Below are positions 1,584-62,439 of a stretch of DNA of 64,000 nt, in pieces. This DNA comes from Vulcanimicrobiota bacterium. Lineage in GTDB: Bacteria; Vulcanimicrobiota; Vulcanimicrobiia; Vulcanimicrobiales; Vulcanimicrobiaceae. Where the stretch lies: the NCBI GenBank assembly GCA_013036095.1, contig JAAXCW010000001.1, forward strand, positions 1 to 64,000. The letters run 5' to 3'. Both the position numbers and the translations under genes were made by a program. How positions within the stretch are numbered: position 1 is the first letter of the stretch; each line of letters begins with the position of its first letter. The notes under the pieces were generated by a model that worked only from the letters and a program-made list of their open reading frames with translations, did no database searches and had not been told where the DNA came from.

Positions 1584-1711
1584 TGTCATGGTGAGCGGCC
1601 CAATATTGTCATGGTGAGCGGCCCAATATTGTCATGGTGAGCGGGCGCCATTAGGCGCCCCCGGTCGAACCACGGCCGAGCAGTGCGCGGAGCGCACGTG
1701 ACGAGGCCCGC
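1584..1711 (+). repeat. Palindromic repeat locus 1 (GTCATGG type)
   Basis: Three GTCATGGTGAGCGG heads in direct tandem are followed by the stem-loop GGGCGCC-ATTA-GGCGCCC, then CGGTCGAACCACGGCCGAGC and a GAGGCCCGC end. This is the GTCATGG...GAACCAC variant of the dispersed repeat, and it fills the gap between two convergent genes. Confidence 0.85.
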
Positions 1712-1722
1712 AGGCTACAAAG

Positions 1723-2100
1723 CTAGGAGCTCTGCGAAGATTTAAACGCCTTCCAGCCGCCGTACTCGGAGATATCTTTGTAGCCGCGCTCTTCGATCAG
1801 CGAGCGCGGATAGATCATTGCGCTGACGCTCGAACCGTCGTCGAGCACGATCGGGGCCTCGTAGAGATCGGGCGGCTCGCTCTCAAGCAACTGTTCGTGC
1901 TGCTCGGGCGTGAATTCGTATAACTCGCCCGCAATAGAAATGCCGCCGCTTTCGACTTCGTAAATCCCTGGGTGTTGATCGCGTACCGAATGCAAGCGGT
2001 ATCGCGGCGCCGTGCGCGCTTCTCCCAAGAACTTCGCGTCACCCAGGTTCTTGTGGTCGGGCTGACCGCGCAGCGCGGACCCGCAGATAAAAAACCTCAC
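1723..2100 (-). CDS. Gamma-glutamylcyclotransferase-like (allophanate hydrolase C-terminal-like) protein
   Basis: 125 residues beginning MRFFICGSALRGQPDH, the F-x-CGS-ALRGQ..H..L signature of small proteins related to the allophanate-hydrolase C-terminal domain/GGCT fold. The ending VSAMIYPRSLIEERGYKDISEYGGWKAF also fits that family. Its ATG overlaps the stop of the upstream amidohydrolase (ATGA), making it the last gene of the ureide-degradation operon. By context it should act on a small ureido or carbamoyl intermediate, but the reaction cannot be read from sequence. It stands alone, without an amidase domain. Confidence 0.75.
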   Translation of the reverse strand: MRFFICGSALRGQPDHKNLGDAKFLGEARTAPRYRLHSVRDQHPGIYEVESGGISIAGELYEFTPEQHEQLLESEPPDLYEAPIVLDDGSSVSAMIYPRSLIEERGYKDISEYGGWKAFKSSQSS

Positions 2101-3305
2101 TTGTCGACCTCCTCAATCGCGCGAGCCAGCGCCACGACTCCTAGTTCCAAATCCGCATCCGCGGTTTTCTCTTCTCCGACGTGGCTATGCCCGCCGATGC
2201 TCGGAACGAAGAGCATGGCCGCCGGAGCAATTTTTGCAATGCACATCGCGTCGTGACCCGCCCCGCTCGGTACGTCCAACGCCTTGTGTCCCATCGTTTC
2301 ACAGACGCGGTGCAGCGCGGCGCGCAGTTTACCGTCCATCTGCGTCGGCTTGTGCACGTCGAGCTTTTCGAGCATGACGCGTACGCCGCGTTCTTTCGTG
2401 ACTTTTTCCGCGGTCGCATGAAAGGCGGACTCGATTGCTTCCATCTTGGCAACGTCCGGGGAACGGTTGTCGATCGAGAAACTGACGCGCGCCGGAATGA
2501 CGTTCGTGCCGCCCGGTTCAACGACGAGGCGGCCGACCGTGACGACAGCGCCGCCGGCGTTTCGTGCGGCCGCCTCCATCGCGAGCACGATCTCGGCAGC
2601 AGCCGAAAGCGCGTCGGAACGCCGGTCCATCGGCACGGTTCCGGCGTGGCCGCTCGTTCCTTCGACGACGGCGCGGTAGCGGATCTGGCCCGTAATCGCG
2701 CTGACGACGCCGAGCTGAACGCCCGCCGCTTCGAGTACGGGGCCCTGCTCGACGTGCAATTCCAAATAGGCGGCGGCGCGCTGCTCGCCGCGCTGCGGCA
2801 AATCCAGCAATCCGCCGTCCGGCGACGCAAGCGCCTCGGCAAGAGTGACGCCCGATTCGTCGCGCAGCGCATACGCATCGTCGAGTGAAGTCAGCCGCGC
2901 AAAAACCGCGCTGCCCAAACATCCGATCGAAAAGCGGCTGCCCTCTTCTCCGACCCACGCGACGGCTTCGACCGGGTGGCGCGTCTCAACGCCCTCGCTG
3001 TCGAGCTGTTCGAGCGCGCAGAGCGCAGCGACAACCCCGTATGCACCGTCGTATGCGCCGCCCGTCGGAACCGTATCGAGATGCGAACCGACCAGAATCG
3101 GCGCCGCTGCCGGATCAATTCCGTTGCGGCGTGCAAAAAGATTGCCGATCGGATCCTGCGTCAGTTGGTAACCGCTTCCGGTCGCCCACTTCACGAAGAG
3201 TTCGCGAGCTCTGCGCTCTTGCGGCGTCGCCAGTCCGCGGTTGATGCCGTGTTCGTACTTCCCGAACTCGGCCAACTCCGCCAGCCGCTGAACGACGCTA
3301 CTCAT
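2097..3305 (-). CDS. M20-family Zn-dependent amidohydrolase (allantoate amidohydrolase / N-carbamoyl-amino-acid hydrolase)
   Basis: 402 residues, the usual length for AllC/HyuC-type enzymes. Visible signatures are VGSHLDTVPTGGAYDGAYGV (metal-binding His and Asp), GEEGSRF (catalytic and metal Glu), ELHVEQGPVLE, the dimerisation-domain stretch GTSGHAGTVPMDRRSDAL, and GAGHDAMCIAKIAPAAMLFVPS with SHVGEE near the end. The family hydrolyses N-carbamoyl or ureido bonds using two metals. Directly downstream of an allantoinase gene, its most likely substrate is allantoate, giving ureidoglycine/ureidoglycolate, CO2 and ammonia. N-carbamoyl-L-amino acids remain possible. It overlaps the following gene by 4 bp. 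Confidence 0.88.
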   Translation of the reverse strand: MSSVVQRLAELAEFGKYEHGINRGLATPQERRARELFVKWATGSGYQLTQDPIGNLFARRNGIDPAAAPILVGSHLDTVPTGGAYDGAYGVVAALCALEQLDSEGVETRHPVEAVAWVGEEGSRFSIGCLGSAVFARLTSLDDAYALRDESGVTLAEALASPDGGLLDLPQRGEQRAAAYLELHVEQGPVLEAAGVQLGVVSAITGQIRYRAVVEGTSGHAGTVPMDRRSDALSAAAEIVLAMEAAARNAGGAVVTVGRLVVEPGGTNVIPARVSFSIDNRSPDVAKMEAIESAFHATAEKVTKERGVRVMLEKLDVHKPTQMDGKLRAALHRVCETMGHKALDVPSGAGHDAMCIAKIAPAAMLFVPSIGGHSHVGEEKTADADLELGVVALARAIEEVDK

Positions 3306-3312
3306 AAAGGTT

Positions 3313-3400
3313 GGCGCGCTAACGCGCGCCCCGTTGGTTTGTCATCCTGAGCTTGTCGAAGGACCCCGAGTAGCGCGCGTGAGCGCGCATATCGAGGGGC
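3313..3400 (+). repeat. Palindromic repeat locus 2
   Basis: GTCATCCTGAGCTTGTCGAAGGAC core flanked on the left by a hairpin (GGCGCGC-TAAC-GCGCGCC) and on the right by GAGTAGCGCGCGTGAGCGCGC. It separates the allantoate amidohydrolase and allantoinase genes. Confidence 0.85.
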
Positions 3401-3403
3401 GCA

Positions 3404-5439: not shown

Positions 5440-5486
5440 GAGCGGCGAGGTTAGACGCGCCTGTAGGCCGTACCCGCCTTGTAGCC

Positions 5487-6842: not shown

Positions 6843-6852
6843 GGAACACTAC

Positions 6853-6933
6853 GTCATGGTGATAATCGTGTCATGGTGAGCAGCGCATCTTTGATGCGCG
6901 TATCGAACCACGGCCGAGCTTGGCGAGGCCCGC
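6853..6933 (+). repeat. Palindromic repeat locus 3 (GTCATGG type)
   Basis: Two GTCATGGTGA heads, the stem-loop GCGCATC-TTT-GATGCGC, then TCGAACCACGGCCGAGCTTGGCGAGGCCCGC. It lies between the convergent deaminase and hicB genes. Confidence 0.85.
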
Positions 6934-6934
6934 G

Positions 6935-7341: not shown

Positions 7342-7397
7342 GAAGCAAATTATTCGTACCAAGTGTTGTCCCAGTATTGCTAGAAAGTGGCGGAATC

Positions 7398-7919: not shown

Positions 7920-7984
7920 CCCGGCGCGGCTGTCACAACTACCCGCCGCCAAAGCGTTTCATCAATCTAAAGGTTGGGCCGGAA

Positions 7985-8911: not shown

Positions 8912-8930
8912 CGAGACCTCGCTAAACGCG

Positions 8931-8939: not shown

Positions 8940-8947
8940 CATGTGGC

Positions 8948-9487: not shown

Positions 9488-11232
9488 GTCGATGTACTGA
9501 GCCGTAGCTGCGAACGGAGCTGCACGATCTCGCGCTCGCGTTCAAGGGCATGCAAATGTTCGTAGGCGGTCGCCGAAGCGTGAGCAAGCGCGTTGAGAAG
9601 CTCCTCTTCTTCGCCGTCGATAGGCTCGCCGTTCACATGGTTTCCGTACAGCACGACCGCAATCACGCGGCGCCCCACGGTGATGGGCAATCCGAACGCC
9701 GGTTTAGCGTCGCCCTTTGGAATCGACGCATGCGAGCGCGGGACGTCCTCCAAGAATACGCCCGCAGGTGACGAGCGTGCGAAAAGAATGAGCGGATCGT
9801 CCGGATCCAGATGATCGGCTGCATCGTCCCAATCGCGCGCGCAGGTTCTAACATATGCGCCTTCATCCGCCCGAAAGAGAGCCGCAGAGGTCAGCTGCAG
9901 CGCGGCCGCAGTTTCATCGCAGAGCATCGTCTCGATCGTCTCTATTCTCTCGGTGAACGGCAGCGCGCGCGTGATGTGCCGTATACGCTCGAGCGCGCGG
10001 TGCCGGCTCGCAAAAAAGACGCGCTCCACGAAACGATCGATGCGCCGGTGCAAGCCGCGGAGCCAAAAACTGAACGCGACGGCCAAGCCCACTTCGACGA
10101 ATGTTGCAAGGCGTGCATCCTGGAGCCGCCGGGCGAAAAACCAGTCGGCGATCGCCAGCAAAGCCACCGGAATTGCCGTAAGCGCCGCATAGACGATGGC
10201 GCGGCCGCCGAAAATTCGAACGTCGATAATACGGCCGCGCACCAGCGCATAGGCAAATGCGACCGGCGCCGGGTTGAAAAGCGTCAGATAAGAAACCCAG
10301 AGCGCGTTGGCGTGAAGCACTTGATCGGTGAAAAATATTCCCAATATCCCCAGGTAAACGGCGACCGCTACGGCTACCCAGCGCATGCGAAGAGTCTCCG
10401 CGCCGCGCGTATTCCAGTAACGAGCTATGAAGGCACCGGCTCCCAGGAAGTTGGCGAGCCATGCGCACGAAACGAAAACGTTGTAGAGCGGGTCGTTTTC
10501 TCCGTCGATAAATGCGACGGTATAGAAATGCCCGTAGTACATCAAAAAGAAGAGCACCATGATAGTCGGGACGGCGCGGTCGACCAGCCTCCACCGGCCG
10601 ATCGCAGTCCCCGTCGGAAAGCGCAAGCAAAGTAACAGATAACCCCACGACTGCGCGAGCGGAAGTAATGCGGCGGCAAATGCTGCCGGCGGCTCCGCCC
10701 AGGGCGGAGAGACATGCATCCAGGCGGTATTGGCAAACGGACCGATCATTGCGAAGCAAAAGATCATGAACGCAAGCGACAGTGTCGAACGCGAAGCGAA
10801 ATAGAACGCGCAGCCCAGAACGACATAAATGATGGCCGCCAGTATTTTAGCCAGATCGACGACGAGCAGGCCTGTGGATATGGGCTCGGGACGCTGAGCA
10901 ATCAGGGTTACCGTCGTGCCATGGCCTTCGCGGATAATTGGAAGCGTCTTGGGAGTGCCGGCGCGTAAATGCCCCGACCGAATCCAGATACGCATCGTCC
11001 ATCCGGCCCGAGCGTAATCGATGCGATCGCCCGGGCGCATGCCTGCGATGGATGCCGCAGTGCCGGGCAGCACCGCTTTTAGCGTGCCCGAGGGGTAATC
11101 GACGGTCGCGCCAATCGGCGCAGGATTCAAGCCCATGAAATTGCCGCTGTCGAGCATCAACTGTACAACCGGAAACGACAGCGTAAACGCGGCCGCTAAG
11201 ATAATCCATAGTGCGGCGCCGCGTCGCTTCAG
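9484..11232 (-). CDS. PDZ-7TM-GAF membrane sensor-like protein with probable CTG start
   Basis: 582 residues if begun at the CTG at 11232. That start gives a basic-hydrophobic N-terminal helix (KRRGAALWIILAAAFTLSF), has AAGGGG seven bases upstream, and overlaps the xanthine dehydrogenase stop as CTGA. The first conventional starts (TTG 11160, ATG 11157) would cut off this helix. A PDZ-like segment follows (GTLKAVLPGTAASIAGMRPGDRID), then about seven to eight transmembrane helices, a short helical linker (LERIRHITRALPFTERIETIETML) and a GAF-like domain (PAFGLPITVGRRVIAVVLYGN). It ends in a coiled coil, with no kinase, HTH or cyclase domain. The layout resembles the input half of a histidine kinase; the output partner is unknown. 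Confidence 0.75.
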   Translation of the reverse strand: MKRRGAALWIILAAAFTLSFPVVQLMLDSGNFMGLNPAPIGATVDYPSGTLKAVLPGTAASIAGMRPGDRIDYARAGWTMRIWIRSGHLRAGTPKTLPIIREGHGTTVTLIAQRPEPISTGLLVVDLAKILAAIIYVVLGCAFYFASRSTLSLAFMIFCFAMIGPFANTAWMHVSPPWAEPPAAFAAALLPLAQSWGYLLLCLRFPTGTAIGRWRLVDRAVPTIMVLFFLMYYGHFYTVAFIDGENDPLYNVFVSCAWLANFLGAGAFIARYWNTRGAETLRMRWVAVAVAVYLGILGIFFTDQVLHANALWVSYLTLFNPAPVAFAYALVRGRIIDVRIFGGRAIVYAALTAIPVALLAIADWFFARRLQDARLATFVEVGLAVAFSFWLRGLHRRIDRFVERVFFASRHRALERIRHITRALPFTERIETIETMLCDETAAALQLTSAALFRADEGAYVRTCARDWDDAADHLDPDDPLILFARSSPAGVFLEDVPRSHASIPKGDAKPAFGLPITVGRRVIAVVLYGNHVNGEPIDGEEEELLNALAHASATAYEHLHALEREREIVQLRSQLRLSTST

Positions 11233-13487: not shown

Positions 13488-15027
13488 TTACTTTGTCATC
13501 CTGAGTAGCGTTCGCCCTCGGCGAACGCGTAGTCGAAGGACGAGGGCTTTCTTCATGCCTCATCTGCTCGCTGGCTTGCTGCATCGCGTCGAGGATCTTC
13601 CGGTAACCGGTACAGCGGCAAATATTTCCGCTAATGGCGGTTTGATGCTGTTCGAGTGTCGGAGCTTCGCATTCTTGCAAGAGCTTGGCGCCCGCCATCA
13701 ACATACCGGGTATGCAAAACCCGCACTGCACGGCGCCGCGCTCGATGTAAGCCTGCTGCAGCGGATGCAATGGTATGTCATCCTGAGTTTGTCGAAGGAC
13801 GTTATGACTCGCAGCTAGGCCTTCAATCGTAACGAGCACGTGGCCGTGCGCTTGCGCGGCCGGAACGAGACACGACATCACCGCCTGCCCGTCGATCCAA
13901 ACAGTGCATGCGCCGCATTCTCCCTCGGCGCAGCCTTCTTTCGATCCCGTGAGCGAAGCATTCTCGCGCAAGGCGTTGAGCAGCGTCTTACGCCCAGCGT
14001 CGCGCATCTCGGCGCGTTTGCCGTTGATCATCGTTACAATCGTGCCGTCGAACTCGCTGGTGGAAAGCGCCGGCGCCTCGCCCGTGTCGAGCAAGATGTG
14101 GCGATCGGGCAGGCCGTCCGCGCATGAGTCGCCGGCAATGCGCTGCAAGCTGCGCTCTACGAGCGCGCTAACCGCGAGCCGCCGGTACTCCGCGCTGCCG
14201 CGCACGTCACCGATCGGCGAAACGTCATCGAGCACCGCTTCTGACGCCGATGCCATCGTCTCCGCGCTCAACGCCTTCCCAATCAGCGCCGCCTCAGCGT
14301 TTTTCGCGCGCACGATCGTCGGCGCCAAACAGCCGAGCGCGATCCTCGCCTCGCTAATATTGTCATCCTGAGTAGCGGTCGCCCTCGGCGACCGCGTAGT
14401 CGAAGGAGCGTTGCTGAACGAAACAACCGTCGCAACGCTTATCACCGAAATCGCTTGTGCGCGGCGTAAGCCGAGCTTGAGAAATATCCCGCGTTCATTT
14501 TCGGCTAAAGGACGCACGCGAATTTCACGCAGCAGCTCGTCCGGGCGCATCACGGTCTGCCGGAAGCCCGTAAAAAAGTCGGCGATGTCGATTGTGCGCT
14601 CGCCATCGACGCTTTGCAGCACGACTTCGCCGCCCATCGCGATCAACGGGACGATCGTGTCGTTTGCGGGGGAAGCGGTAACCAAGTTGCCGGCGAGTGT
14701 CGCGCGCGTGCGAATCTGCGGCGCGCCGACTTCGACGCACGCTTGCACGAGCGGCAGCGCGCGCTGGGCGCACGCTTGCGAGGCGAGCACGTCATTGTGC
14801 GTCGCGAGTCCGCCAATCGCGATGCGCTCGCCTTCGTCGCGAACGTATTTCAGCTCGGTGAGCTGCGTAACGTCTATCAGCGTTTCCGTCGGCTTGACCC
14901 CGCGCTGCAGCTCGACGAGCACGTCGGTGCCGCCCGACACAATGCGGGCCGCTGCACCGTATTCGCGGAGCAATGCAAGCGCCCGCGCTATCGAACGCGG
15001 CTGAAAGTACTGCTGCCACAGCATCAC
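13471..15027 (-). CDS. Fused FAD-binding and [2Fe-2S] subunit of xanthine dehydrogenase, with three repeat insertions
   Basis: 518 residues. Residues 1 to ~290 are a CoxM-type FAD domain (ARIVSGGTDVLVELQRG, VGAPQIRTRATLAGNLVTASPANDT). Residues ~325-485 are a CoxS-type domain with the plant-ferredoxin Cys set (GCAEGECGACTVWIDG...C) and the second cluster (CGFCIPGM...CRCTGYRKI). The FAD-then-FeS order is the reverse of the long eukaryotic XDH. Repeat peptides interrupt it at ~208-222 (STTRSPRATATQDDN), ~410-417 (RQTQDDI) and in the C-terminal tail (RPSTTRSPRANATQDDK). All keep frame and avoid the Cys ligands. Start is GTG 15027 or ATG 15024. The tail overlaps the next gene by 17 bp. Confidence 0.9.
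   Translation of the reverse strand: MMLWQQYFQPRSIARALALLREYGAAARIVSGGTDVLVELQRGVKPTETLIDVTQLTELKYVRDEGERIAIGGLATHNDVLASQACAQRALPLVQACVEVGAPQIRTRATLAGNLVTASPANDTIVPLIAMGGEVVLQSVDGERTIDIADFFTGFRQTVMRPDELLREIRVRPLAENERGIFLKLGLRRAQAISVISVATVVSFSNAPSTTRSPRATATQDDNISEARIALGCLAPTIVRAKNAEAALIGKALSAETMASASEAVLDDVSPIGDVRGSAEYRRLAVSALVERSLQRIAGDSCADGLPDRHILLDTGEAPALSTSEFDGTIVTMINGKRAEMRDAGRKTLLNALRENASLTGSKEGCAEGECGACTVWIDGQAVMSCLVPAAQAHGHVLVTIEGLAASHNVLRQTQDDIPLHPLQQAYIERGAVQCGFCIPGMLMAGAKLLQECEAPTLEQHQTAISGNICRCTGYRKILDAMQQASEQMRHEESPRPSTTRSPRANATQDDKVNATAR
13495..13543 (+). repeat. Palindromic repeat locus 5, 3' end of the FAD/FeS subunit gene
   Basis: GTCATCCTGAGTAGC, stem-loop GTTCGCC-CTC-GGCGAAC, GTAGTCGAAGGACGAG. 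It encodes the C-terminal tail containing NATQDDK on the minus strand. Confidence 0.9.
13777..13800 (+). repeat. Palindromic repeat locus 6, minimal unit inside the FeS domain
   Basis: GTCATCCTGAGTTTGTCGAAGGAC: head joined straight to tail with no inner stem-loop. It inserts about eight codons (LRQTQDDI) between the two iron-sulphur subdomains. Confidence 0.9.
14362..14407 (+). repeat. Palindromic repeat locus 7, inside the FAD domain
   Basis: GTCATCCTGAGTAGC, stem-loop GGTCGCC-CTC-GGCGACC, GTAGTCGAAGGA. It is read in frame on the minus strand as STTRSPRATATQDD. Confidence 0.9.
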
Positions 15028-24056: not shown

Positions 24057-24057
24057 C

Positions 24058-26877: not shown

Positions 26878-27018
26878 GTCATGGGTGAGCCGGACACATT
26901 GTGTCATGGTGAGCGGGCACATATTGTCATGGTGAGCCCAGTAATGTCATCCTGAGCGTAGCGTTTCGCCTTTAGCGAAACGCGAAGTCGAAGGACGGCC
27001 GAGCTTGTCGAGGCCCGC
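26878..27018 (+). repeat. Palindromic repeat locus 9, composite of both head types
   Basis: Three GTCATGG(G)TGAGC heads are followed by a full GTCATCCTGAGCGTA copy with stem-loop GTTTCGC-CTTTA-GCGAAAC, GTCGAAGGACGGCCGAGCTTGTCGAGGCCCGC. It lies between convergent genes and shows that the two head variants belong to one family. Confidence 0.88.
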
Positions 27019-30968: not shown

Positions 30969-32057
30969 TTAGAGGGAGAGTAATTTGCGAGCCTGGGGCG
31001 TGTCCTGGTACTCGACGGTCAGGATAGCACGCATGTGCGTGCGAGCGGCGTTTGCATCCGGCGTGCCGATTTTTCCGAGCGTGGTATACATGTCGAGTAG
31101 GAGCTGCGGCAGGTCTCGGTCGCGCGGATAGACTTTGTGCATGTCGTCGATCGCGGTGGCGATCTGCACGGCCGCGTTGCTTTCTTGCGAAGTGTAGCCA
31201 TAGCCGATCATGAAATTGACGCGCTTGAGTTCGTTTTGAATGCCGAGAATCGACATTCCCATCGGCCCGAAATACTCGTCCGCGGGCGCCAGCGTCGTTA
31301 AATACACGTCGTGCGGTTGTGACTTGACGCTGGCGATGAGCGGCGGCGCGTTTGCCAGGCGCAGCCTGTTGAGCACCGCCTGAGCGTTGACTTGGTCGCC
31401 CTGCGTGTAGCTTTCCGCGCCGGCAGCCGCATTGCGCAACGCGTTAAGGAAAGACGGCCCCCACGTGGAGGGCAAATTGGCGATCGGAAACGCCGGTGCG
31501 TTCGCATGCACGAAGGCTAAACTGCGCCACGAGGCGTCGCCGCTGATCAGGTAGCCGCGCCAGTTCGCCTCGACCCGCTCCAATTGTGCGTTCGCGTCGC
31601 GGGGATAGGCCTGCAATAGCGCGGTGGCATCTTCGTCGGCATATTGTGCGAGCGCGATGGGATCTTCGAGCGCGTTGACCCGCGCGAGCAAATCCTTGGC
31701 TTTGGTCTGCTCCGCGCGATCGGGATTGTTTTTCTGAACGAAGAGCGCCGCCTCGCGCACCCACCACGGTACAGCTTCGTGATTGATGAGCGGATCGTAA
31801 TGTAAGGCAGACGCCATATCGACCGTCAGTTGCGCCAGGTTAGCATAACCCGGATCGTTTGGCCGCTGCAGCGAGTACGCGCGGCCGGCGTTAAAGATCG
31901 TTGAGAGATATTCTTGCTGATTGTAAAACGTCCAGCCCTGCGCAGCGCCCTTTTCGAACGATGCCTTCATCTGTGCGTACAGCGTGGCGGGATCGGCCAT
32001 GAGCGTCGCGCTCGCCCGCAACGGCAACAAGAGCGCTAGTAACGCCCCCATTATCAT
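30969..32057 (-). CDS. Secreted alpha-helical protein of unknown function
   Basis: 362 residues from the ATG at 32057 (MIMGALLALLLPLRASATLMA), a signal peptide; 32051 is an alternative ATG. The longer open frame to 32108 would read a dispersed repeat as STTRPLRRPLLR, so it is rejected, yet the 32057 ATG itself comes from the repeat's CAGGATGA. The mature protein is helical and repeat-like (FYNQQEYLSTIFNAGRAYSLQRPNDPGYANLAQL; ALLQAYPRDANAQLERVEAN), as in TPR-like scaffolds. No family recognised. It follows PurP-2 closely. Confidence 0.65.
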   Translation of the reverse strand: MIMGALLALLLPLRASATLMADPATLYAQMKASFEKGAAQGWTFYNQQEYLSTIFNAGRAYSLQRPNDPGYANLAQLTVDMASALHYDPLINHEAVPWWVREAALFVQKNNPDRAEQTKAKDLLARVNALEDPIALAQYADEDATALLQAYPRDANAQLERVEANWRGYLISGDASWRSLAFVHANAPAFPIANLPSTWGPSFLNALRNAAAGAESYTQGDQVNAQAVLNRLRLANAPPLIASVKSQPHDVYLTTLAPADEYFGPMGMSILGIQNELKRVNFMIGYGYTSQESNAAVQIATAIDDMHKVYPRDRDLPQLLLDMYTTLGKIGTPDANAARTHMRAILTVEYQDTPQARKLLSL

Positions 32058-32098
32058 CCTGAGTAGAGGCCGCCTTAGCGGCCTCGTAGTCGAAGGAC
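32054..32098 (+). repeat. Palindromic repeat locus 10, between purP-2 and the secreted-protein gene
   Basis: TCATCCTGAGTAG, stem-loop AGGCCGC-CTTA-GCGGCCT, CGTAGTCGAAGGACTA. It provides the stop codon of purP-2 at one edge and a start codon of the next gene at the other. Confidence 0.88.
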
Positions 32099-36189: not shown

Positions 36190-38348
36190 GCGTAGATCTC
36201 GGCCAGCGGCTTTAGCCACGCAGCGCGCAGTTCGTCCAGATCCCAGAATTGGCCGCCTGAAGCGATGTCGACTTCGCCTTCGATATCTGCGACCGTCACA
36301 ATGCCTACACGCCGCCAGTCGTCAGGCGATAGCTTCCGGCTTGCAAGATCCTCGAAAGCCGCGGCTTCGGCCGCTTCGATTAACCAGCCGCGATGATGCC
36401 CTTCCTGCGCAATTCCCGTTGTGAATTCGACGCCAAAATCATTTCCGGAGGCAAACGCCATTTGTGCCGCCGCTGCCAACATGCCATCGTCTCCGATCGC
36501 TCGGACCGACAAAATCAACCTGTCGTTGATTCCCTCAAGGACCGCAACCATGCGTTTACTTTCGGTTGGCGAGTTGGTCGCATCTCCCCGAGCTCCGACA
36601 AAATACAGGCGAGAACCCGGACGTTTCAGCGCCGGAGTGACCACCTTACCAATATTGTCGAGCACCCCGATGCATCCGATTATCGGCGACGACGGGATAG
36701 CCGTTCCGGATGCTGATTCATTATACAGACTCACATTGCCGGATACAAACGGCAGCCCCAGAATTTTGGCTTCCTCCGATAGCGCCGCGACGGCGCTAAC
36801 GAGCTCCCCATAATGCTCTTCGTTATTCGGATTGCCGAAATTCAGGCAATCCGTTAAACCGATGGGTCGAGCTCCGACCGCGACGACTTTCCGAACCGCT
36901 TCGAAGACGCTTGCGCCAACGCTTAATGCTACGCCGAATGGCGCACCCGGAACCGGCGCAATGACCCCCGCGTCCGCGTGACCGCGCGGAATAACGGTCC
37001 TTCCCCGCACGACCGAATCGTATTCTTTGTACAGCGGTTCGCGCGAGCAGGCGTTTATGTGCGCCAGCGTTTTGGTTAAGGGCGCAGCCCCTCCCCGTAT
37101 GTCATCCTGAGCGGTGATGTCATCCTGAGTAAGCCTGCCCTGAGCTTGTCGAAGGGTCGAAGGACGAGCGCTACCACCGAGCGTTCTTTCAGTCGAAGGG
37201 GCGCCGGTTAGAAAATCAACCGGCACGTCCATGACGATGTCGCTACCGTACCGCATGACGTAACGCTTCTCGGCCTGCACGGCTCCGATGACGGTCGCCC
37301 GGGCGCCGCGGGCAATCTCAGGGAGCGAAAACTCTTCATTATATATGCGCAACACGTCGGCGGTCACATCGCCGGGCAAGACCCAGGCCAGCCGCTCCTG
37401 CGTTTCGCCGACGGCAATCACTTCCGGCGGCAAGTCCTGCACCGCAACGTTGACGTCGTCGAGATCGATGATCGCTCCATAGCCGCCCGCCGCACAGAGC
37501 TCCGCGGTGCAACCCATGATACCGCCGGCGCCCAAATCCTTGAAGCCGGCCGTGATTTTCTTCTCGCGCAGATATTCGAAGACGCGATAGGACGCCCGCA
37601 TGATGACATTTTTGAGAAACGGATCCGGAACCTGAACTGCGCTCTTGTTGGCTTCCTGGTTATCTTCTGCCAACGTCAGCGATGAAAATGAGGCGCCGCC
37701 GAAACCGCTTGCGTCGGTCGCTTTCCCGACGAGCACGATATCCCATCCGGCCGAGCCGTCCGGCGCCCGCGAACGTATGATCTCGCTCTCTTTCACAAGG
37801 CCCAATGCGATCACGTTGACCAGGCAATTGTCGTTGAAGCCTTCGTCGAAGTAGACGTCGCCGGCGATGTTTGGGACGCCGATCGCGTTTCCGTATGCCG
37901 CGATACCGTCGACGACTTGTTGCGCGACGTAGCGCTGGTGGGAATTCGGATCATCGACGTTGCCGAAGCGCAGGCAATCGGCCAGCGCGATCACTTCCGC
38001 GCCCATGCACAGCACGTCGCGCACGATGCCGCCGACCCCGGTCGCGGCGCCTTCGAACGGCACGACTTGTGAAGGATGGTTGTGCGATTCATGCGCGATG
38101 ACGACGCCGTAACGCTCGCCCTTGTATTCCCCGAGATGCAAGATGCCCGCATCCTCACCCGGCCCGAGGACCACGCTTGCTCCGGTCGTCGGCAACTGCT
38201 TGAGCAGGTGGCGGCTGCTCTTGTAGGAGCAATGTTCGCTCCACTGCGCATCGAACGCGTGCAGCTCGACGGTCGTTGGCTCGCGGCCCAAACCCTCGGC
38301 GATGCGGCGCAACTCGTCGGGCCGCAAGGCCAAAGCGAGCCTAGCCAA
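36186..38348 (-). CDS. purL: Phosphoribosylformylglycinamidine synthase subunit PurL, with in-frame repeat insertion
   Basis: 720 residues, the small (PurSQ-dependent) type. Motifs: WSEHCSYKSSRHLLKQLP, GIDSD-like GEDAGILHLGEYKGERYGVVIAHESHNHPSQVVPFEGAATGVGGIVRD, GLVKESEIIRSRAPDGSAGWDIVLVGKATDASGFGGASFSS, LTDCLNFGNPNNEEHYGEL and GNVSLYNES. Residues ~394-417 (STLRQAQGRLTQDDITAQDDI) come from a double dispersed repeat in the linker between the two halves. Start is TTG 38348, overlapping purC-E by 8 bp. Confidence 0.94.
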   Translation of the reverse strand: MARLALALRPDELRRIAEGLGREPTTVELHAFDAQWSEHCSYKSSRHLLKQLPTTGASVVLGPGEDAGILHLGEYKGERYGVVIAHESHNHPSQVVPFEGAATGVGGIVRDVLCMGAEVIALADCLRFGNVDDPNSHQRYVAQQVVDGIAAYGNAIGVPNIAGDVYFDEGFNDNCLVNVIALGLVKESEIIRSRAPDGSAGWDIVLVGKATDASGFGGASFSSLTLAEDNQEANKSAVQVPDPFLKNVIMRASYRVFEYLREKKITAGFKDLGAGGIMGCTAELCAAGGYGAIIDLDDVNVAVQDLPPEVIAVGETQERLAWVLPGDVTADVLRIYNEEFSLPEIARGARATVIGAVQAEKRYVMRYGSDIVMDVPVDFLTGAPSTERTLGGSARPSTLRQAQGRLTQDDITAQDDIRGGAAPLTKTLAHINACSREPLYKEYDSVVRGRTVIPRGHADAGVIAPVPGAPFGVALSVGASVFEAVRKVVAVGARPIGLTDCLNFGNPNNEEHYGELVSAVAALSEEAKILGLPFVSGNVSLYNESASGTAIPSSPIIGCIGVLDNIGKVVTPALKRPGSRLYFVGARGDATNSPTESKRMVAVLEGINDRLILSVRAIGDDGMLAAAAQMAFASGNDFGVEFTTGIAQEGHHRGWLIEAAEAAAFEDLASRKLSPDDWRRVGIVTVADIEGEVDIASGGQFWDLDELRAAWLKPLAEIYA
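37101..37167 (+). repeat. Palindromic repeat locus 11, double copy inside purL
   Basis: Two GTCATCCTGAG heads 18 bp apart, then GCCTGCCCTGAGCTTGTCGAAGGGTCGAAGGACG. Read in frame on the minus strand they give two QDD motifs. Confidence 0.9.
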
Positions 38349-39552: not shown

Positions 39553-39617
39553 GTCATCCTGAGTAGCGCGTCTTCGACGCGCGTGTCGAAGGACGGCCGA
39601 GCGACGCCGGGGCCCGC
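39553..39617 (+). repeat. Palindromic repeat locus 12, 3' end of purB
   Basis: GTCATCCTGAGTAGC, stem-loop GCGCGTC-TTC-GACGCGC, GTGTCGAAGGACGGCCGAGC...GGGGCCCGC. It supplies the purB stop codon (TGA within GGATGAC) and the last ~20 residues. Confidence 0.9.
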
Positions 39618-45828: not shown

Positions 45829-46314
45829 TTAGCGCGCGGGAACCCTTGTGTCCGCGGGAATACCCAGCAGCGCCGCCGCCGCAAGTGCAGCGTGATAGCC
45901 TTTGTCGCCGCGCTTTGGATCCGCGCGGAACTCCGCCTGTTCGAGCGTATCGGTCGTGAGCACGCCGAATCCGATCGGCACGCCGGTCGCGAGCTGCACG
46001 TCCATAATGCCGCGCGCGGCCTCGCCCGCGACGTAATCGAAATGCGCCGTTTCTCCGCGCACCACCGCGCCAAGCGCTACGATCGCATCGGTATTGCCTT
46101 CGGAAATCACCCGCCTCGCCGCCAGCGGCAATTCGAAACAGCCCGGCACGGCGTACGTGCGTATATCTTCTTCACGCACGTTGCACGCGCGCAGCGCGCG
46201 GCGCGCCCCCGCCTCGAGCCAATCGGCGATCTGCGGATAAAAGCGCGCGGTAATGATGACGAACCGCTTCCCCTCGCAGTTGGGTGTCATGGGAAGGTCA
46301 TTACTTTCTGTCAT
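45829..46314 (-). CDS. ribH: 6,7-dimethyl-8-ribityllumazine synthase
   Basis: 161 residues. Motifs RFVIITARFYPQIADWLEAGARRAL, YAVPGCFELPLAARRV, ALGAVVRGETAHFDYVAGEAARGI and PIGFGVLTTDTLEQAEFRA are those of lumazine synthase; the catalytic His is in the ETAHFDYV segment. The ATG at 46314 lies in a dispersed repeat (CAGGATGAC); ATG 46290 is an alternative. It makes lumazine from DHBP and the RibD product, both enzymes encoded nearby. Confidence 0.93.
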   Translation of the reverse strand: MTESNDLPMTPNCEGKRFVIITARFYPQIADWLEAGARRALRACNVREEDIRTYAVPGCFELPLAARRVISEGNTDAIVALGAVVRGETAHFDYVAGEAARGIMDVQLATGVPIGFGVLTTDTLEQAEFRADPKRGDKGYHAALAAAALLGIPADTRVPAR

Positions 46315-46363
46315 CCTGAGTAGAGGTCGCCTTAGCGACCTAGTCGTCGAAGGACGAGGCCCG
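46310..46363 (+). repeat. Palindromic repeat locus 13, between ribBA and ribH
   Basis: GTCATCCTGAGTAG, stem-loop AGGTCGC-CTTA-GCGACCT, AGTCGTCGAAGGACGAGGCCCG. It encodes the C-terminal RASSFDD and stop of ribBA and provides an ATG for ribH. Confidence 0.9.
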
Positions 46364-47752
46364 ATCTAACATATGTCCCATTTTATTGCGCTTCGTCTGC
46401 ATATATTTGGTGTTAAAGGGCGTTTGCTCGGTTTGCAGCGGAACACGGTCCACGATTTTGAGGCCGTATCCTTCGAGCCCGAAGATTTTGCGCGGATTGT
46501 TGGTGATGATGCGCATCTCTTTCACACCGAGATCCGCCAGAATCTGCGAGCCGATCCCGTAATCGCGTTTATCGACCGGCAAACCGAGAGCGATATTGGC
46601 TTCCACCGTGTCCGCGCCTTGGTCTTGCAGCTCGTATGCGCGCAGTTTGTTGGCAAGCCCGATGCCGCGCCCTTCCTGGCGCAGATACAGGAAGACGCCG
46701 CGGCCTTGCGCCGCGATAATGCGCATGGCTGCATCGCGCTGCTCCGCGCAATCGCACCGGATCGAATGGAGCGCGTCACCGGTCAGGCATTCGGAGTGAA
46801 CGCGCACCGCGATATCTTTGCCGTCGCCAATCTCACCCATGACGAGCGCGACGTGCGTATTCTTGTCGATGCTGTTTTCGTAAGCGTACCCGGTCCATTC
46901 GCCGAGCGGCGTCGGGAGCTTGAACTCGGCGATGCGATGCAGCAGTTTTTCGGTGCGCCAACGGTAAGCAATCAAATCTTTGACGGTGATCAGTTTGAGG
47001 CCGTGCTTTTTGGCGAACGCGATCAGCCCGTCGAGGCGCTCCATCTTGCCGTCTTCGGCCATGATTTCGCAGATGACCCCGGCCGGATACAAGCCGGCCA
47101 ACCGCGCGAGGTCGACCGCAGCCTCCGTCTGCCCGGCGCGAACGAGCACACCGCCATCGCGCGCTCGCAACGGAAATGAATGGCCGGGCCGCAGCAAATC
47201 CGACGGCTTCGTCGCCGGATCCAGCAGTGCGGCGATCGTGGCGGATCGATCGTGCGCCGAAATTCCGGTGGTCGTCCGTCCTCGCGCCTCAACCGAAACC
47301 GTAAAAGCCGTTTCATGAAGCGCGCTATTTTCGGAAACCATCTGCGGCAAGTGCAGCTCGTCCAAACGTCTGCCGATCAGCGGCACGCAGATGAGGCCGC
47401 CCGCGTGTTTGCGCATGAAGTTGATCGCTTCGGGCGTCACCATCTGCGCGGCCATCACCAGGTCGCCTTCGTTCTCGCGATCCTCGTCGTCGAGCACGAT
47501 GACCATTTTGCCGGCGCGGATGTCGCGGACGGCGCCTTCGATCGAATCGAAGGGCGAGGATTCCTCAAGCGTGCCGTTCAGTTCAGGCAGCACTTGGGTC
47601 AGCCGCTGCAGGGAGCGGTAAGACGGCTCGCGCTGCCCGGAGCGCAGGTAGGAGATGGCGGCCTCGGTCAGCCCGCTTCGGTCGGCCAATTCCGCAGCCG
47701 TCAGGCCGGCGGAGGTCATGGCCGCATTGAGTTCGTCAGCGAAGGGGATCAC
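46340..47752 (-). CDS. ribBA: RibBA with an N-terminal XRE-type helix-turn-helix domain
   Basis: 470 residues from a GTG at 47752. Residues ~4-57 are a Cro/C1-type HTH: ADELNAAMTSAGLTAAELADRSGLTEAAISYLRSGQREPSYRSLQRL. Residues ~68-265 are DHBP synthase (FDSIEGAVRDIRAGKMVIVLDDEDRENEGDL, HDRSATI, RPGHSFPLRARDGGVL). Residues ~275-455 are GTP cyclohydrolase II (VRVHSECLTGDALHSIRCDCAEQ zinc site, YLRQEGRGIGLANKLRAYELQ). The HTH is in frame with no stop. With an 18-bp palindrome just upstream it may repress its own gene. Such a fusion is not the usual RibBA layout. Confidence 0.9.
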   Translation of the reverse strand: MIPFADELNAAMTSAGLTAAELADRSGLTEAAISYLRSGQREPSYRSLQRLTQVLPELNGTLEESSPFDSIEGAVRDIRAGKMVIVLDDEDRENEGDLVMAAQMVTPEAINFMRKHAGGLICVPLIGRRLDELHLPQMVSENSALHETAFTVSVEARGRTTTGISAHDRSATIAALLDPATKPSDLLRPGHSFPLRARDGGVLVRAGQTEAAVDLARLAGLYPAGVICEIMAEDGKMERLDGLIAFAKKHGLKLITVKDLIAYRWRTEKLLHRIAEFKLPTPLGEWTGYAYENSIDKNTHVALVMGEIGDGKDIAVRVHSECLTGDALHSIRCDCAEQRDAAMRIIAAQGRGVFLYLRQEGRGIGLANKLRAYELQDQGADTVEANIALGLPVDKRDYGIGSQILADLGVKEMRIITNNPRKIFGLEGYGLKIVDRVPLQTEQTPFNTKYMQTKRNKMGHMLDRASSFDD

Positions 47753-55885: not shown

Positions 55886-55912
55886 CGCCTGGTGATTCGG
55901 GGTCGCGCTACT

Positions 55913-56015
55913 GTCATCCTGAGCGGGCGCCATAAGGCGCCCCAGTCGAAGGACGGCCGAGCGATGTCATCCTGAGCAGCGCATCTGTGATGCGCCGGTC
56001 GAAGGGCGAGGCCCG
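55913..56015 (+). repeat. Palindromic repeat locus 14, tandem pair upstream of ribD
   Basis: First copy with stem-loop GGGCGCC-ATAA-GGCGCCC and CGGCCGAGC; second with GCGCATC-TGT-GATGCGC and GAGGCCCG. They fill the ribD-comF divergent gap and may place an ATG and QDD codons at the front of ribD. Confidence 0.9.
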
Positions 56016-56053
56016 TGCGAAACCGAGCTTGCGAAACGCGGCGGTCCGCGTGA

Positions 56054-60018: not shown

Positions 60019-61385
60019 TTGATAACAGTCTTTTCGCCGGTGTTCCCCTTGTCATCCTGAGTAGAGGTCGCCTTAGCAAGCTTGTCATCCTGAGTAGATG
60101 TCGCCTTAGCAAGCTTGTCATCCTGAGTAGAGGTCGCCTTAGCAAGCTTGTCATCCTGAGTAGATGTCGCATCAGCGACATCGTAGTCGAAGGACGACAA
60201 GTGGAATTCGTCGTGCACGGCCTGTTCGGAGCGCGCGGCGTCATCGGATGGAACGAGGATCGAGACCGTGATGTTGCTGTCGGTCGCGTGGATGATCTCG
60301 ATGTTCGCTGTCGAGAGCGCCGAAACGATCCGGTGAATGACGCCTGGTTCGTAGCGCATACCTTCGCCAACAACGGAAAGCTTCGAACAAGCCTCGCGCG
60401 CGCGCACGGCCAGATTCAGATCTCCAAGGAGCTTGCGAATTTCCTCGCCGCGATCGCCTTCGACAACAAACATGACGCCGGCTTGATTGATCGTCACCTG
60501 ATCGATGGATATCCCCGCTGCTGCAAGCCGCTCGAACATATGCATTTCAAGCTGCATGCGCCGTTGCCGGTCTTCGATGTCCCCGCGAATGGCGCGAATC
60601 CAGGTGACGCGTCCCGACGCCGTGACCCCGGTGACCGGCTTGCGGGGCTCCAGCCGCGCGTCAACGACGGTTCCTTCGCCCGTCGCGAGACTGCGGATAG
60701 CATATGGCGTGCGCGTGCGCTGCGCGTAGTCAGCCGCCTTATGGTGCATGATCTTCGCACCGTGCTGCGCGAGTTCGGTCATCTCTTCGAGGCTTGCGCG
60801 ATCGATCGTGTGCGCGCCGTTCACGCGGCGCGGATCGGCGGTCATTGCGCCGGCGACGTCGGTGTAAACGTCGATGCGCTCCGCATCGAGCGCATGTCCG
60901 AGCGCAATCGCCGTCAGGTCAGTTCCACCGCGTCCCAACGTGGTAATCTGGCCGTCTTCGCTGATGCCCTGAAAGCCGGCGATAACCGGGACTTTCTTCG
61001 CCGCAAGAACGTCGCGCACGCGCTGCGTTTCGACCCGAACGATCGTCGCATCGCCGTGCACATCGTCGGTAATGATTCCGGCCTGTGCGCCGCTCAACGC
61101 GACCGCTCCGATGCCGTCGCGCTCCAATTCAGAGGCCAGAACTGCGGCGGCGATAAGTTCGCCCGACGCCAGCAGCAGATCCGCGTTCGGACCACTGCGC
61201 GCGCCGTCAATCAGCGAAAGCAGCGAGTCAGTCGCATAAGGCTGGGGCGCGCGGCCCATCGCGGAAACAACTGCAACAGGCGATTCTCCGCGTTCGATGG
61301 CCTCACGGATTCGTTCAACCGCGATGTCGCGCGTTTCGGGCGACGCGACCGACGTACCACCAAACTTCAACACAGCGATTTTCAC
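60015..61385 (-). CDS. lysC: Aspartate kinase with repeat-encoded C-terminal tail
   Basis: 456 residues from a GTG at 61385 (VKIAVLKFGGTSVASPETRDIAVERI). Kinase motifs KFGGTSVA, ASGELIAAAVLASEL, TTLGRGGTDLTAIALGHAL, YTDVAGAMTADPR; two ACT domains follow (NQAGVMFVVEGDRGEEI; SKLSVVGEGMRYEPGVIHRIVSALS). The normal protein would end near SSFDYDV. A further ~50 residues consist of four ATSTQDDKLAK-like units encoded by a 33-bp tandem array. Feedback control by lysine/threonine is expected from the ACT domains. Confidence 0.93.
   Translation of the reverse strand: MKIAVLKFGGTSVASPETRDIAVERIREAIERGESPVAVVSAMGRAPQPYATDSLLSLIDGARSGPNADLLLASGELIAAAVLASELERDGIGAVALSGAQAGIITDDVHGDATIVRVETQRVRDVLAAKKVPVIAGFQGISEDGQITTLGRGGTDLTAIALGHALDAERIDVYTDVAGAMTADPRRVNGAHTIDRASLEEMTELAQHGAKIMHHKAADYAQRTRTPYAIRSLATGEGTVVDARLEPRKPVTGVTASGRVTWIRAIRGDIEDRQRRMQLEMHMFERLAAAGISIDQVTINQAGVMFVVEGDRGEEIRKLLGDLNLAVRAREACSKLSVVGEGMRYEPGVIHRIVSALSTANIEIIHATDSNITVSILVPSDDAARSEQAVHDEFHLSSFDYDVADATSTQDDKLAKATSTQDDKLAKATSTQDDKLAKATSTQDDKGNTGEKTVIK
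60051..60197 (+). repeat. Palindromic repeat locus 15, 33-bp tandem array in lysC
   Basis: GTCATCCTGAGTAG heads at 60051, 60084, 60117 and 60150, an exact 33-bp period (11 codons). The last has stem-loop ATGTCGC-ATCA-GCGACAT and GTAGTCGAAGGACGAC. The first three lack the tail and the right arm of the stem. Confidence 0.92.
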
Positions 61386-61388
61386 GAT

Positions 61389-61459
61389 GTCATCCTGACC
61401 CAGCGATGTCATCCTGAGTAGCACGTCCTTGACGCGCGTAGTCGAAGGACGAGGCCCGC
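61389..61459 (+). repeat. Palindromic repeat locus 16, 3' end of asd
   Basis: A bare GTCATCCTGA head followed by a full copy (stem-loop GCACGTC-CTT-GACGCGC with one mismatch, GTAGTCGAAGGACGAGGCCCGC). The full copy encodes RASSFDYARQGRATQDD of Asd; the bare head gives its TGA stop. Confidence 0.9.
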
Positions 61460-62367
61460 ACGCCACGTGCGATCAGCAACTCAAGTATCTGCACAGCATT
61501 CGTCGCGGCGCCCTTGCGAAGCTGATCGCCGACGACCCACATTTGAAAGTGCCGCTTATCATCGCCGGCGGAACGCAACCGGGCGACGTGTACGTCATCG
61601 GTGCCCTCCACGTCGCGCGGCGTCACGACGCCGCTGCGATGGAACACCACAGCCGGCGCTCGGCTTAATACAAGCGCGAGCTGCTCGACCGTCGTCTCAC
61701 GTTCTGTCTCGAAAAACACCGCCTCCGAATGAGCCGTCCTCACGGGTACGCGTACCGTCGTCGCATAAAGCGGCAGCTCCGGCAGATCCAAAATCTTCCG
61801 CGTCTCGTCGCGCACTTTCAATTCTTCGCCGCTGTAGCCGTCGTCGCCGAAATCGCCGACCTTCGGCACGACGTTGCGCACGAACGCACCCTCGCCCGCG
61901 TCGAACTCCTCGAGCGCCGCGCGTCCCGCTCCGCTCACTGCCTGATATGTCGCGACATTGACGGATCGCAGCCCTGCCGCGTCCCGCACGGGTGCAAGCG
62001 CGACGCATAAGATAATCGCGGTACAGTTCCCCACCGGAAATAAATGATGCTCCGGGAGAATCGCCGAGGCGTTAATTTCCGGTACCACAAGCGGCACATC
62101 GGAACGCATGCGGTACGTGGAGCTGTTGTCGATCACCACACCGCCCCGTTCCAAAATAGGGGGCACGAACTCCGAACTCGCCTCATCCGATCCCGCAAAG
62201 AAGACGGTATCGTAGTCCGCGAGCGCTTCCGTCGAGGTTTCCAGCACCCCGCTGCGCGCGCTCGAAGCAAACAACCCTAAACGCTCGACGGGGATTTTCC
62301 GCTCGCGCAGCACCTGCACGATCGTTTCACCGACGGCTCCGGTCGCGCCAACCACGGCGACGTTCAC
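61390..62367 (-). CDS. asd: Aspartate-semialdehyde dehydrogenase
   Basis: 325 residues from a GTG at 62367. NADP fold VAVVGATGAVGETIVQVL, FAGSDEASSEFVP, VVPEINASAIL, catalytic Cys in FPVGNCTAIILCVAL, TYQAVSGAGRAALEE, and VRVPVRTAHSEAVFFETER with the catalytic His. The fold ends near NAVQILELLIARG; the following RASSFDYARQGRATQDDIAGSG is repeat-encoded. It reduces aspartyl phosphate for lysine, threonine and methionine synthesis. Four bases separate it from lysC. Confidence 0.94.
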   Translation of the reverse strand: MNVAVVGATGAVGETIVQVLRERKIPVERLGLFASSARSGVLETSTEALADYDTVFFAGSDEASSEFVPPILERGGVVIDNSSTYRMRSDVPLVVPEINASAILPEHHLFPVGNCTAIILCVALAPVRDAAGLRSVNVATYQAVSGAGRAALEEFDAGEGAFVRNVVPKVGDFGDDGYSGEELKVRDETRKILDLPELPLYATTVRVPVRTAHSEAVFFETERETTVEQLALVLSRAPAVVFHRSGVVTPRDVEGTDDVHVARLRSAGDDKRHFQMWVVGDQLRKGAATNAVQILELLIARGVRASSFDYARQGRATQDDIAGSG

Positions 62368-62372
62368 CTAAT

Positions 62373-62439
62373 TGTCATCCTGAGTAGCGCATTTGTGATG
62401 CGCGTCGTCGAAGGACGCCCGAGCCGGGTCGAGGGCCGC
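62373..62439 (+). repeat. Palindromic repeat locus 17, between asd and dapB
   Basis: GTCATCCTGAGTAGC, stem-loop GCGCATT-TGT-GATGCGC (one G-T pair), GTCGTCGAAGGACGCCCGAGCCGGGTCGAGGGCCGC. Intergenic; it occupies almost all of the gap. Confidence 0.88.

What the first reader, a model, noticed from the sequence alone, without database searches (positions are those of the whole stretch)
1584..62439. A dispersed palindromic element enters protein-coding genes in frame and encodes 'TQDD' peptides
Seen directly: 17 loci carry GTCATCCTGAG (or GTCATGGTGAG) + stem-loop + GTCGAAGGAC, often with CGGCCGAGC...GAGGCCCGC. At least six copies lie inside coding regions without a frameshift or stop; on the minus strand CTCAGGATGAC reads TQDD. 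Known precedent: Rickettsia palindromic elements insert in frame into proteins, but their sequence differs as far as I recall. Short GTCATCCTGAG...GTCGAAGGA-like repeats also occur in other bacterial genomes I remember. The inference is an expanding nonautonomous element, or protein-tolerated repeat, in this lineage that adds unstructured surface peptides to housekeeping enzymes.
Basis: partly seen in the sequence, partly recalled or inferred. Interest (0 to 1): 0.85.

Follow-up and report, generated by a model that had tools for sequence, protein, structure and literature searches.

The report
Hairpin repeats tolerated inside bacterial proteins
A soil bacterium of a little-known phylum carries many copies of a short DNA hairpin that keeps landing in new places, including inside enzymes without breaking their reading frames; the kind of element is known, but its paired-letter swapping and one-way orientation in one region are unusual and may help show how such hairpins spread without a known transposase.

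Summary
The window has 17 loci with 25 exact heads on the + strand and 0 on the - strand; G000 has 150 exact CC-type heads and 81 of 99 family genomes carry that head. At least four copies are internal to genes in frame (XDH large subunit, XDH small subunit twice, PurL) and four more lie in C-terminal parts. Orthologues 86-91% identical lack the two internal XDH small-subunit inserts, so these are recent. 'TQDD' is one of four readings: 60 of 221 loci sampled in three genomes lie inside long ORFs, none in the two frames with the element's own TGA, so the DNA hairpin is the unit and the peptide a by-product. The closest known kind is CGTC/TGTC-tagged REPs, which include Rickettsia RPE-4/6 and lack a transposase; several defining features are not met. 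Unusual here: a compensating outer core (205 of 219 copies), interchangeable inner hairpins, turnover at the same gene slots, head-to-tail arrays, and regional strand polarity independent of gene direction. Y1 transposase, reverse transcriptase and IS110 were not found in 7 genus genomes. The spreading mechanism (single-stranded hairpin copying) is inferred.

The parts
1585..1711 (+). three GG-type heads in tandem (23-bp units) plus inner hairpin, GTCGAACC tail and second GGCC hairpin; no ORF of 150 codons spans it
3341..3399 (+). short form (CTT loop) plus second CCCC/GGGG hairpin; G068 has a near-identical copy, C2 lacks it, G070 has a GG-type copy in the slot
6870..6933 (+). GG-type long form plus second hairpin, after a + ORF; other + copies in the slot in G068 and G070, none in C2
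12150..12218 (+). copy inside XDH large subunit (11229-13487 -), read TQDD; same loop holds other fillers in C2, G068, G073 and is short in G070
13495..13541 (+). C-terminal copy of XDH small subunit; same slot in C2, G070 and G068 with other interiors
13777..13800 (+). short-form copy inside XDH small subunit (VLRQTQDDI in place of GK), absent in 10 of 10 aligned orthologues
14362..14407 (+). long-form copy inside XDH small subunit (PSTTRSPRATATQDDNI), absent in 10 of 10 aligned orthologues; G073 has its own different insert in this loop
20275..20327 (+). copy between two + genes; empty in C2, other copies in the slot in G070 and G073
26903..27018 (+). two GG-type heads, then a CC-type long copy with second hairpin, downstream of a + gene; a GG-type copy in the slot in G070
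32053..32098 (+). copy (head ATCATCCTGAG) at the N-terminal end of ORF 30969-32108 -
37101..37165 (+). extra head plus nested copy inside PurL (36186-38348 -), read TQDDITAQDDI; C2 has a different copy, G070 a reverse-oriented one
39553..39617 (+). copy at the PurB C-terminus and upstream of PurC; another copy in C2, a reverse-oriented one in G073, none in G070
46310..46363 (+). copy at the C-terminal end of ORF 46340-47752 -; empty in C2 and G070
55913..56015 (+). one copy set within the second hairpin of another, at the RibD N-terminal end; other copies in the same slot in C2 and G070
60051..60195 (+). four heads in 33-bp tandem plus one tail in LysC C-terminus (ATSTQDDKLAK repeats); C2 has a single head (ATQDDKAG)
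61389..61459 (+). extra head plus copy at the Asd C-terminus and LysC N-terminal end; empty in C2, another copy in G070
62374..62439 (+). copy between Asd and DapB genes; C2 has another in the slot, G070 none

Best explanation
This is a family of REP-like, apparently non-autonomous palindromic DNA elements in Candidatus Eremiobacterota. The core is T-GTCAT-[NN]-TGAG ... GTCGAA-[N'N']-AC. It holds a 3-nt loop or an exchangeable inner hairpin, and often a second hairpin of the same plan (GGCCGAG..GTCGAGGCC or CCCCGAG..GTCGAGGGG) follows. Shown: copies are present at sites that are empty in close relatives, persist at other sites, and differ in interior at the same gene slot between species. Inferred: in single-stranded form (replication or repair) the hairpin is copied or joined into new sites, or swapped between copies, by a host repair or replication activity, or by a trans-acting enzyme not detected here. 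Purifying selection then leaves copies only where tolerated: intergenic spaces, protein ends and length-variable loops, in the four frames that contain no stop of the element. The peptides are by-products.
For: Non-random and dispersed. Recent gain: inserts at 13777 and 14362 absent from 10 of 10 aligned orthologues, including ones 86-91% identical; empty or differently filled sites in C2, G070, G068, G073. Structure is what is kept: the two free outer-core bases are complementary in 205 of 219 distinct copies, by five pairings, CC/GG 152, GG/CC 43, CG/CG 7, TC/GA 2, CA/TG 1; inner stems of 6 bp or more in 98 of 113 long-loop copies with 44 distinct arms, mean stem 7.10 against 4.14 shuffled. 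One retained in-gene slot shows GG/CC in G000 and CC/GG in G070 with the rest aligned. Frame filter: 60 of 221 loci inside long ORFs, 0 in the two frames with the element's TGA. No candidate mobiliser among three families tested: Y1_Tnp 0 of 7 genus genomes and 4 of 99 in the family; RVT_1 0 of 7 and 12 of 99; IS110 0 of 7 and 19 of 99. CGTC REPs also lack one (PMC3733652). Polarity: in the sampled parts of C1 and C2, 47 of 49 intergenic loci are on + whatever the gene directions; in sampled windows with corrected GC3 skew over 0.1, 31 of 31 loci lie on the C-rich strand.
Against: Polarity is not general: neighbouring loci agree beyond chance in G000 (17/5000 permutations reach the observed) and G070 (3/5000) but not in G073 (1221/5000) or G010 (4161/5000). 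The rank correlation of corrected skew with orientation is weak: rho -0.33, p 0.037 in G000; -0.15, p 0.49 in G070; +0.34, p 0.14 in G073. At skew of 0.05 or more, 73 of 83 loci in G000 plus G070 are on the C-rich strand but only 7 of 16 in G073. Raw skew gave opposite trends in G000 and G073. Shared polarity between species is partly shared slots: of the 17 window loci, 8 have a same-direction copy or remnant in the slot in C2 and 7 in G070 (my count). So the replication link is unproven. Three transposase or RT families were tested, not all. Gene conversion and repeated insertion at one slot are not separated. No experiment shows movement.
Confidence: 0.72

Rival explanations
1. Classical GTAG-type REPs mobilised by a RAYT (Y1 tyrosine transposase) that cuts single-stranded REP hairpins.
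For: Similar size, hairpin with internal mismatches, high copy number, tag next to the hairpin foot; REP insertions that do not disrupt the frame are known for that class (PMC6006769 passages).
Against: No Y1_Tnp in G000 or in any of 7 genus genomes, and in only 4 of 99 in the family; the tag is (T)GTC, not GTAG; neighbours within 300 bp run head-to-tail (105 of 108), not as inverted pairs.
Confidence: 0.08
2. A functional RNA or DNA element kept at gene ends (terminator, mRNA stabiliser, protein-binding site), so that slots are conserved because the element does something there.
For: The same slots hold copies in several species with structure kept and sequence changed; 10 of 15 second-hairpin triloops are GNA and 4 of 7 tetraloops GNRA, loops recalled as very stable.
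Against: 60 of 221 loci are inside long ORFs; related genomes lack copies at many sites; orientation ignores transcription in C1 and C2; no Rfam family at gathering score in the window.
Confidence: 0.15
3. Selected peptide: the TQDD segments are functional additions to enzymes.
For: The four internal in-gene copies of this window all read QDD; LysC carries a four-fold TQDD repeat.
Against: Genome samples use four readings (21, 12, 11 and 16 of 60); close orthologues lack the inserts; the same loop holds unrelated fillers (XDH large subunit).
Confidence: 0.03
4. Polarity and density are artefacts of a mixed bin.
For: C1 1-82 kb and C2 238-310 kb are syntenic at about 75-89% nucleotide identity in one bin, and the bin is marked 6.6% contaminated.
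Against: The polarity recurs in both contigs, in G070 contig C8 (30 of 32 listed heads) and on one G068 contig (5 of 5 heads), other assemblies of the same region.
Confidence: 0.04

Closest known systems
CGTC-tagged REPs (Di Nocera et al. 2013, PMC3733652; abstract, passages and sections 6 and 15 read)
   Same: Unpaired (C/T)GTC tag at one end, short palindrome, high copy number, no dedicated transposase, in-gene copies, heterogeneous stems and loops.
   Different: Theirs: 8-9 bp stems, 4-5 nt loops, CCA tail, mostly HH dimers, negligible HT dimers. Here: a 4-bp outer core with tandem G.A, a 3-nt loop or an interchangeable inner hairpin, no CCA tail, head-to-tail arrays, regional polarity. Eremiobacterota is not named in the parts I read.
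Rickettsia palindromic elements RPE-4/6/7 (PMC3767692, abstract and passages read)
   Same: Insertion in ORFs without destroying the frame; ATGAC motif; orthologues with different RPE groups near the same site, with hotspot and divergence both considered.
   Different: Rickettsia is an alphaproteobacterium. Here some copies are recent and absent in near relatives, and inner and outer pairs co-vary.
RPE-1 type and small mobile sequences (Delihas review PMC2229807, passages read)
   Same: Reading frames fused in frame to host genes; in one case, gmk, the product with the insert was active with changed substrate affinity.
   Different: About 100-200 bp; here the core hairpin is about 24-47 bp.
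GTAG REPs, REPINs and RAYTs (PMC3116915, PMC2817692: search listings only; PMC6006769: passages)
   Same: Short dispersed hairpins; single-stranded hairpin recognition as a model.
   Different: GTAG tag, inverted pairs and a Y1 transposase; none of these found here.

Membership tests
CGTC-tagged REP | unpaired CGTC or TGTC tag at one end | tested here: met
   T precedes GTC in 215 of 226 first heads. GTC itself is fixed by the search pattern, so only the T is independent.
CGTC-tagged REP | complementary AT at stem positions 1 and 2 | tested here: not met
   In 62 short forms the T is paired (A in 58), but the A faces C in 53, T in 7 and G in 2: one of two positions.
CGTC-tagged REP | 8-9 bp stem and 4-5 nt loop | tested here: not met
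   Outer core of about 4 bp, G.A mismatches, then 3 nt or, in most others, an inner stretch of 17-31 nt.
CGTC-tagged REP | short unpaired tail, mostly CCA | tested here: not met
   In 62 short forms the tail reads mostly ACCCC and runs into the second hairpin.
CGTC-tagged REP | mostly HH dimers, HT negligible | tested here: not met
   105 of 108 neighbours within 300 bp have the same orientation in four genomes (heads used: G000 100 of 150, G070 99 of 105, G073 100 of 120, G010 90 of 90).
CGTC-tagged REP | no dedicated transposase | tested here: met
   Y1_Tnp, RVT_1 and IS110 not found in the 7 genus genomes; other transposase families not searched.
CGTC-tagged REP | copies within ORFs without breaking them | tested here: met
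   60 of 221 loci; orthologue alignments.
GTAG REP / RAYT | GTAG tag and Y1 transposase | tested here: not met
   Tag is TGTC; Y1_Tnp in 4 of 99 family genomes, none in the genus.
Rickettsia RPE | in-frame insertion in conserved protein genes | tested here: met
Rickettsia RPE | sequence homology to a named RPE | not tested
   No Rickettsia sequence was fetched; only the published ATGAC motif was compared.
MITE | terminal inverted repeats with target-site duplication | tested here: inconclusive
   Filled and empty sites were aligned and no duplication was evident by eye; flanks differ too much for a count.

The most novel reading that the evidence does not exclude
The hairpins spread without any transposase. 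They are copied as single-stranded DNA on one template strand of the replication fork, which gives head-to-tail arrays, strand polarity strongest where strand asymmetry is strongest, swapping of inner hairpins at a fixed slot, and simultaneous flips of both sides of the outer pair. This would be the missing propagation route of the CGTC-tagged REPs and of RPE-4/6.
Probability: 0.18. Interest if true: 0.82.

Novelty: new variant of a known kind. Interest (0 to 1): 0.5.

Why it matters
How REPs without a transposase multiply was left open when they were classified (PMC3733652). These Eremiobacterota genomes offer near relatives with filled and empty sites, a zone where orientation is almost fixed, and conserved slots in which both halves of the hairpin change together, so models of copying can be tested on sequence alone. 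They also give cases of enzymes that accept up to three inserts in one chain.

Tried and rejected
Replication strand as a genome-wide rule: raw GC skew gave opposite trends in G000 (rho -0.27, p 0.087) and G073 (+0.48, p 0.031). Gene-corrected GC3 skew gave -0.33 (p 0.037), -0.15 (p 0.49) and +0.34 (p 0.14) in G000, G070 and G073. G010, whose 90 heads all lie on one contig, alternates. DnaA was located but on contigs other than C1, C2 and G070 C8, so fork direction could not be set.

Transcription as the cause of polarity: rejected for the sampled parts of C1 and C2.

RAYT, reverse transcriptase and IS110: no match in the genus.

Protein structure: the AlphaFold2 model of XDH small subunit from a 4-row alignment failed, so surface exposure was not tested.

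Orthologue rows that failed: the C2 row of PurC and the G070 row of LysC came out as wrong-frame fragments and were not used. In one search only the 10 best loci were aligned; L020, L021 and the weaker, partial matches were left out.

Literature: the head string and its reverse complement were searched in papers; the 20 of 203 listed are on other subjects by their titles. Nothing on Eremiobacterota repeats stood out among 15 of 46 listed. These searches cover open PMC papers only.

Loop statistics rest on 23 second hairpins and are a lead only. A set of 28 copies of equal length was listed but not taken further because the inner stems lie in different registers.
Full report
Identity of the genome. 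The window is contig C1, 1-64000, of a 2.58-Mb, 19-contig bin (97% complete, 6.6% contamination). The nearest named hits of its XDH small subunit are Candidatus Eremiobacterota isolates palsa_1523 and palsa_1493. C1 1-82 kb is syntenic with C2 238-310 kb at about 75-89% identity: most likely two species in one bin. I used C2 as a relative, not as the same genome.

The observation. 17 loci, 25 exact heads on +, none on -. The genome has 150 exact CC heads, 116 forward and 34 reverse, against 1 for the reversed pattern. That head occurs in 81 of 99 family genomes, with 39 to 120 copies in the five same-genus relatives that are at least 94% complete and 30 in one that is 56% complete. The 23-base short form occurs in 55 of 149 phylum genomes, 54 of them in the family. 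A 33-base short-form query matched 25 plasmid records of other groups; the match is 100% over 21-23 bases in Rhizobium, Microvirga, Methylobacterium, Phyllobacterium and Nitratireductor (E values 0.006 to 0.07, so weak singly), which suggests that the short motif is not confined to this phylum.

Anatomy. T precedes the head in 215 of 226 first heads, with T or G before it in 181. Head and tail form an outer core whose two free bases pair in 205 of 219 distinct copies, in five combinations. GTC, TGAG and TCGA were fixed by the search patterns, so their constancy is not evidence; the pairing of the free positions is. The interior is a 3-nt loop (48 of 131 copies) or a hairpin: 98 of 113 long-loop copies have 6 or more pairs, with 44 distinct arms. 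A second hairpin of the same plan often follows. Some interiors hold a further unit: of 13 strings caught by the pattern, eight contain an added CCTGTCCTGAG or CCTGCCCTGAG, the others being tandem heads or other shapes. Tandem units can be heads alone: 23 bp at 1585, 33 bp in LysC.

Insertion into genes. XDH small subunit carries three copies. Against the 10 best orthologues, those at 13777 and 14362 are absent in all ten; G073 has its own different insert in the 14362 loop. The C-terminal copy (13495) has counterparts in C2, G070 and G068 with different interiors; G068 and G070 share the right flank and second hairpin but differ inside, so the interior was probably replaced in place there. 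XDH large subunit, PurL, PurB, LysC and Asd were compared with C2, G070, G068 or G073 where these hold a readable orthologue (two rows failed, see Tried and rejected). The XDH large-subunit loop is filled differently in the window, C2, G068 and G073 and is short in G070. The PurL loop has different copies in the window and C2 and a reverse-oriented one in G070. LysC of C2 has one head where the window has four. Asd of G070 also carries a C-terminal copy. Across the sampled sequence of three genomes, 60 of 221 non-redundant loci lie at least 40 codons inside ORFs of at least 200 codons with coding periodicity: 33 antisense and 27 sense, using four of the six frames; the two unused ones contain the element's TGA. 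These ORF calls are crude and mostly without homology; heads within 150 bp were counted once, and loci within 300 bases of a stretch end or with a context already seen were dropped.

A slot that changed both sides. In one gene shared by G000 C3 and G070 C6, the same in-frame position holds GTCATGG..CGAACC in one and GTCATCC..CGAAGG in the other, with the flanks and the second hairpin aligned. Four linked changes by independent point mutation are unlikely; replacement from another copy, or strong selection for pairing, is more likely.

Polarity. Within 300 bp, 105 of 108 neighbours share orientation (G000 18/18, G070 15/16, G073 17/19, G010 55/55, on listed heads). At longer range, neighbours agree beyond chance in G000 and G070 but not in G073 or G010. 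The region is the point: in the sampled parts of C1 (384 of 475 kb) and C2 (310 of 344 kb), 47 of 49 intergenic loci are on +, including 12 of 12 between + genes and 13 of 13 between - genes. G070 C8 has 30 of 32 listed heads in the corresponding direction and one G068 contig 5 of 5. Part of this agreement may be inherited: by my count, 8 of the 17 window loci have a same-direction copy or remnant in the slot in C2 and 7 in G070 (one more in G070 is reversed), often with another interior; the other loci have none there. The strongest gene-corrected GC3 skew of the sample lies here: in the nine 20-kb windows over 0.1 (eight in C2 80-260 kb, one in G070 C8), 31 of 31 loci are on the C-rich strand. 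C1 0-80 kb is dense and one-way with a skew of only 0.02-0.08. At 0.05 or more the figures are 73 of 83 for G000 plus G070 and 7 of 16 for G073, and the rank correlations are weak (G070 p 0.49). Windows in C3-C5, G070 and G073 were mostly chosen because they held hits, so they are not a random sample.

No mobiliser found. Y1_Tnp: none in the 7 genus genomes, 4 of 99 in the family. RVT_1: none, 12 of 99. IS110: none, 19 of 99. G055, with 245 heads, has none of the three. Other transposase families were not searched.

Comparison with what is known. In PMC3733652 (abstract, passages, sections 6 and 15) REPs fall into GTAG and CGTC classes; the CGTC tag is often TGTC, CGTC repeats have no transposase association, they occur inside genes, and RPE-4 and RPE-6 belong to them. 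PMC3767692 (abstract and passages) reports an ATGAC motif in RPE-4/6/7 and different RPE groups near the same site in orthologues. PMC2229807 (passages) reports an active guanylate kinase carrying an RPE. So in-frame palindromes are a known kind. I do not file these as CGTC REPs because stem, loop, tail and dimer arrangement were tested and not met; they work like them. My paper searches listed no description of them in Eremiobacterota; those searches cover open PMC papers and listed at most 20 titles each.

Verdict. A real, active-looking, REP-like family in which DNA structure is kept and coding sequence is tolerated background. The steps supported by sequence are dispersal, recent gain, in-frame tolerance, pair compensation, turnover at slots and regional polarity. 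The copying mechanism is inferred. On checking, I lowered the probability of the boldest reading from 0.20 to 0.18, because slots are shared between species more than I first wrote and the skew correlation in G070 is not significant.

Noticed in passing
G000 C1:1-82000 and C2:238000-310000: The same gene order occurs twice in the bin at about 75-89% nucleotide identity, so the bin probably mixes two species.
   Followed up: partly
G000 C2:80000-260000; G070 C8:120001-140000 (L130): A zone of exceptional gene-corrected GC3 skew (up to 0.25 in size) with one-way copies; what makes it asymmetric is unknown.
   Followed up: partly
window 60051-60195: LysC C-terminus carries a 33-bp (11-codon) unit repeated, each with a head and half a stem; C2 has one head only.
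   Followed up: partly
G000 C1:340596 and 333406; L126 and L091: In genes that look like S9 peptidases (motif recalled, not tested) a short copy sits in what looks like the same loop, read FDKLRMT, in G000, G070 and G073 and in a second G000 gene: possibly a copy kept in frame across the genus.
   Followed up: partly
second hairpins: Of 23 second hairpins with 5 or more pairs, 10 of 15 triloops are GNA and 4 of 7 tetraloops GNRA; small numbers.
   Followed up: no
G010 contig C1: In another genus many loci are tandem arrays of 2-6 same-direction heads about 20-120 bp apart, with the loci alternating in direction along the contig.
   Followed up: no
G055: Highest head count of the family, 143 forward and 102 reverse, mostly short form (208 full short-form matches against 245 heads); not studied further.
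   Followed up: no
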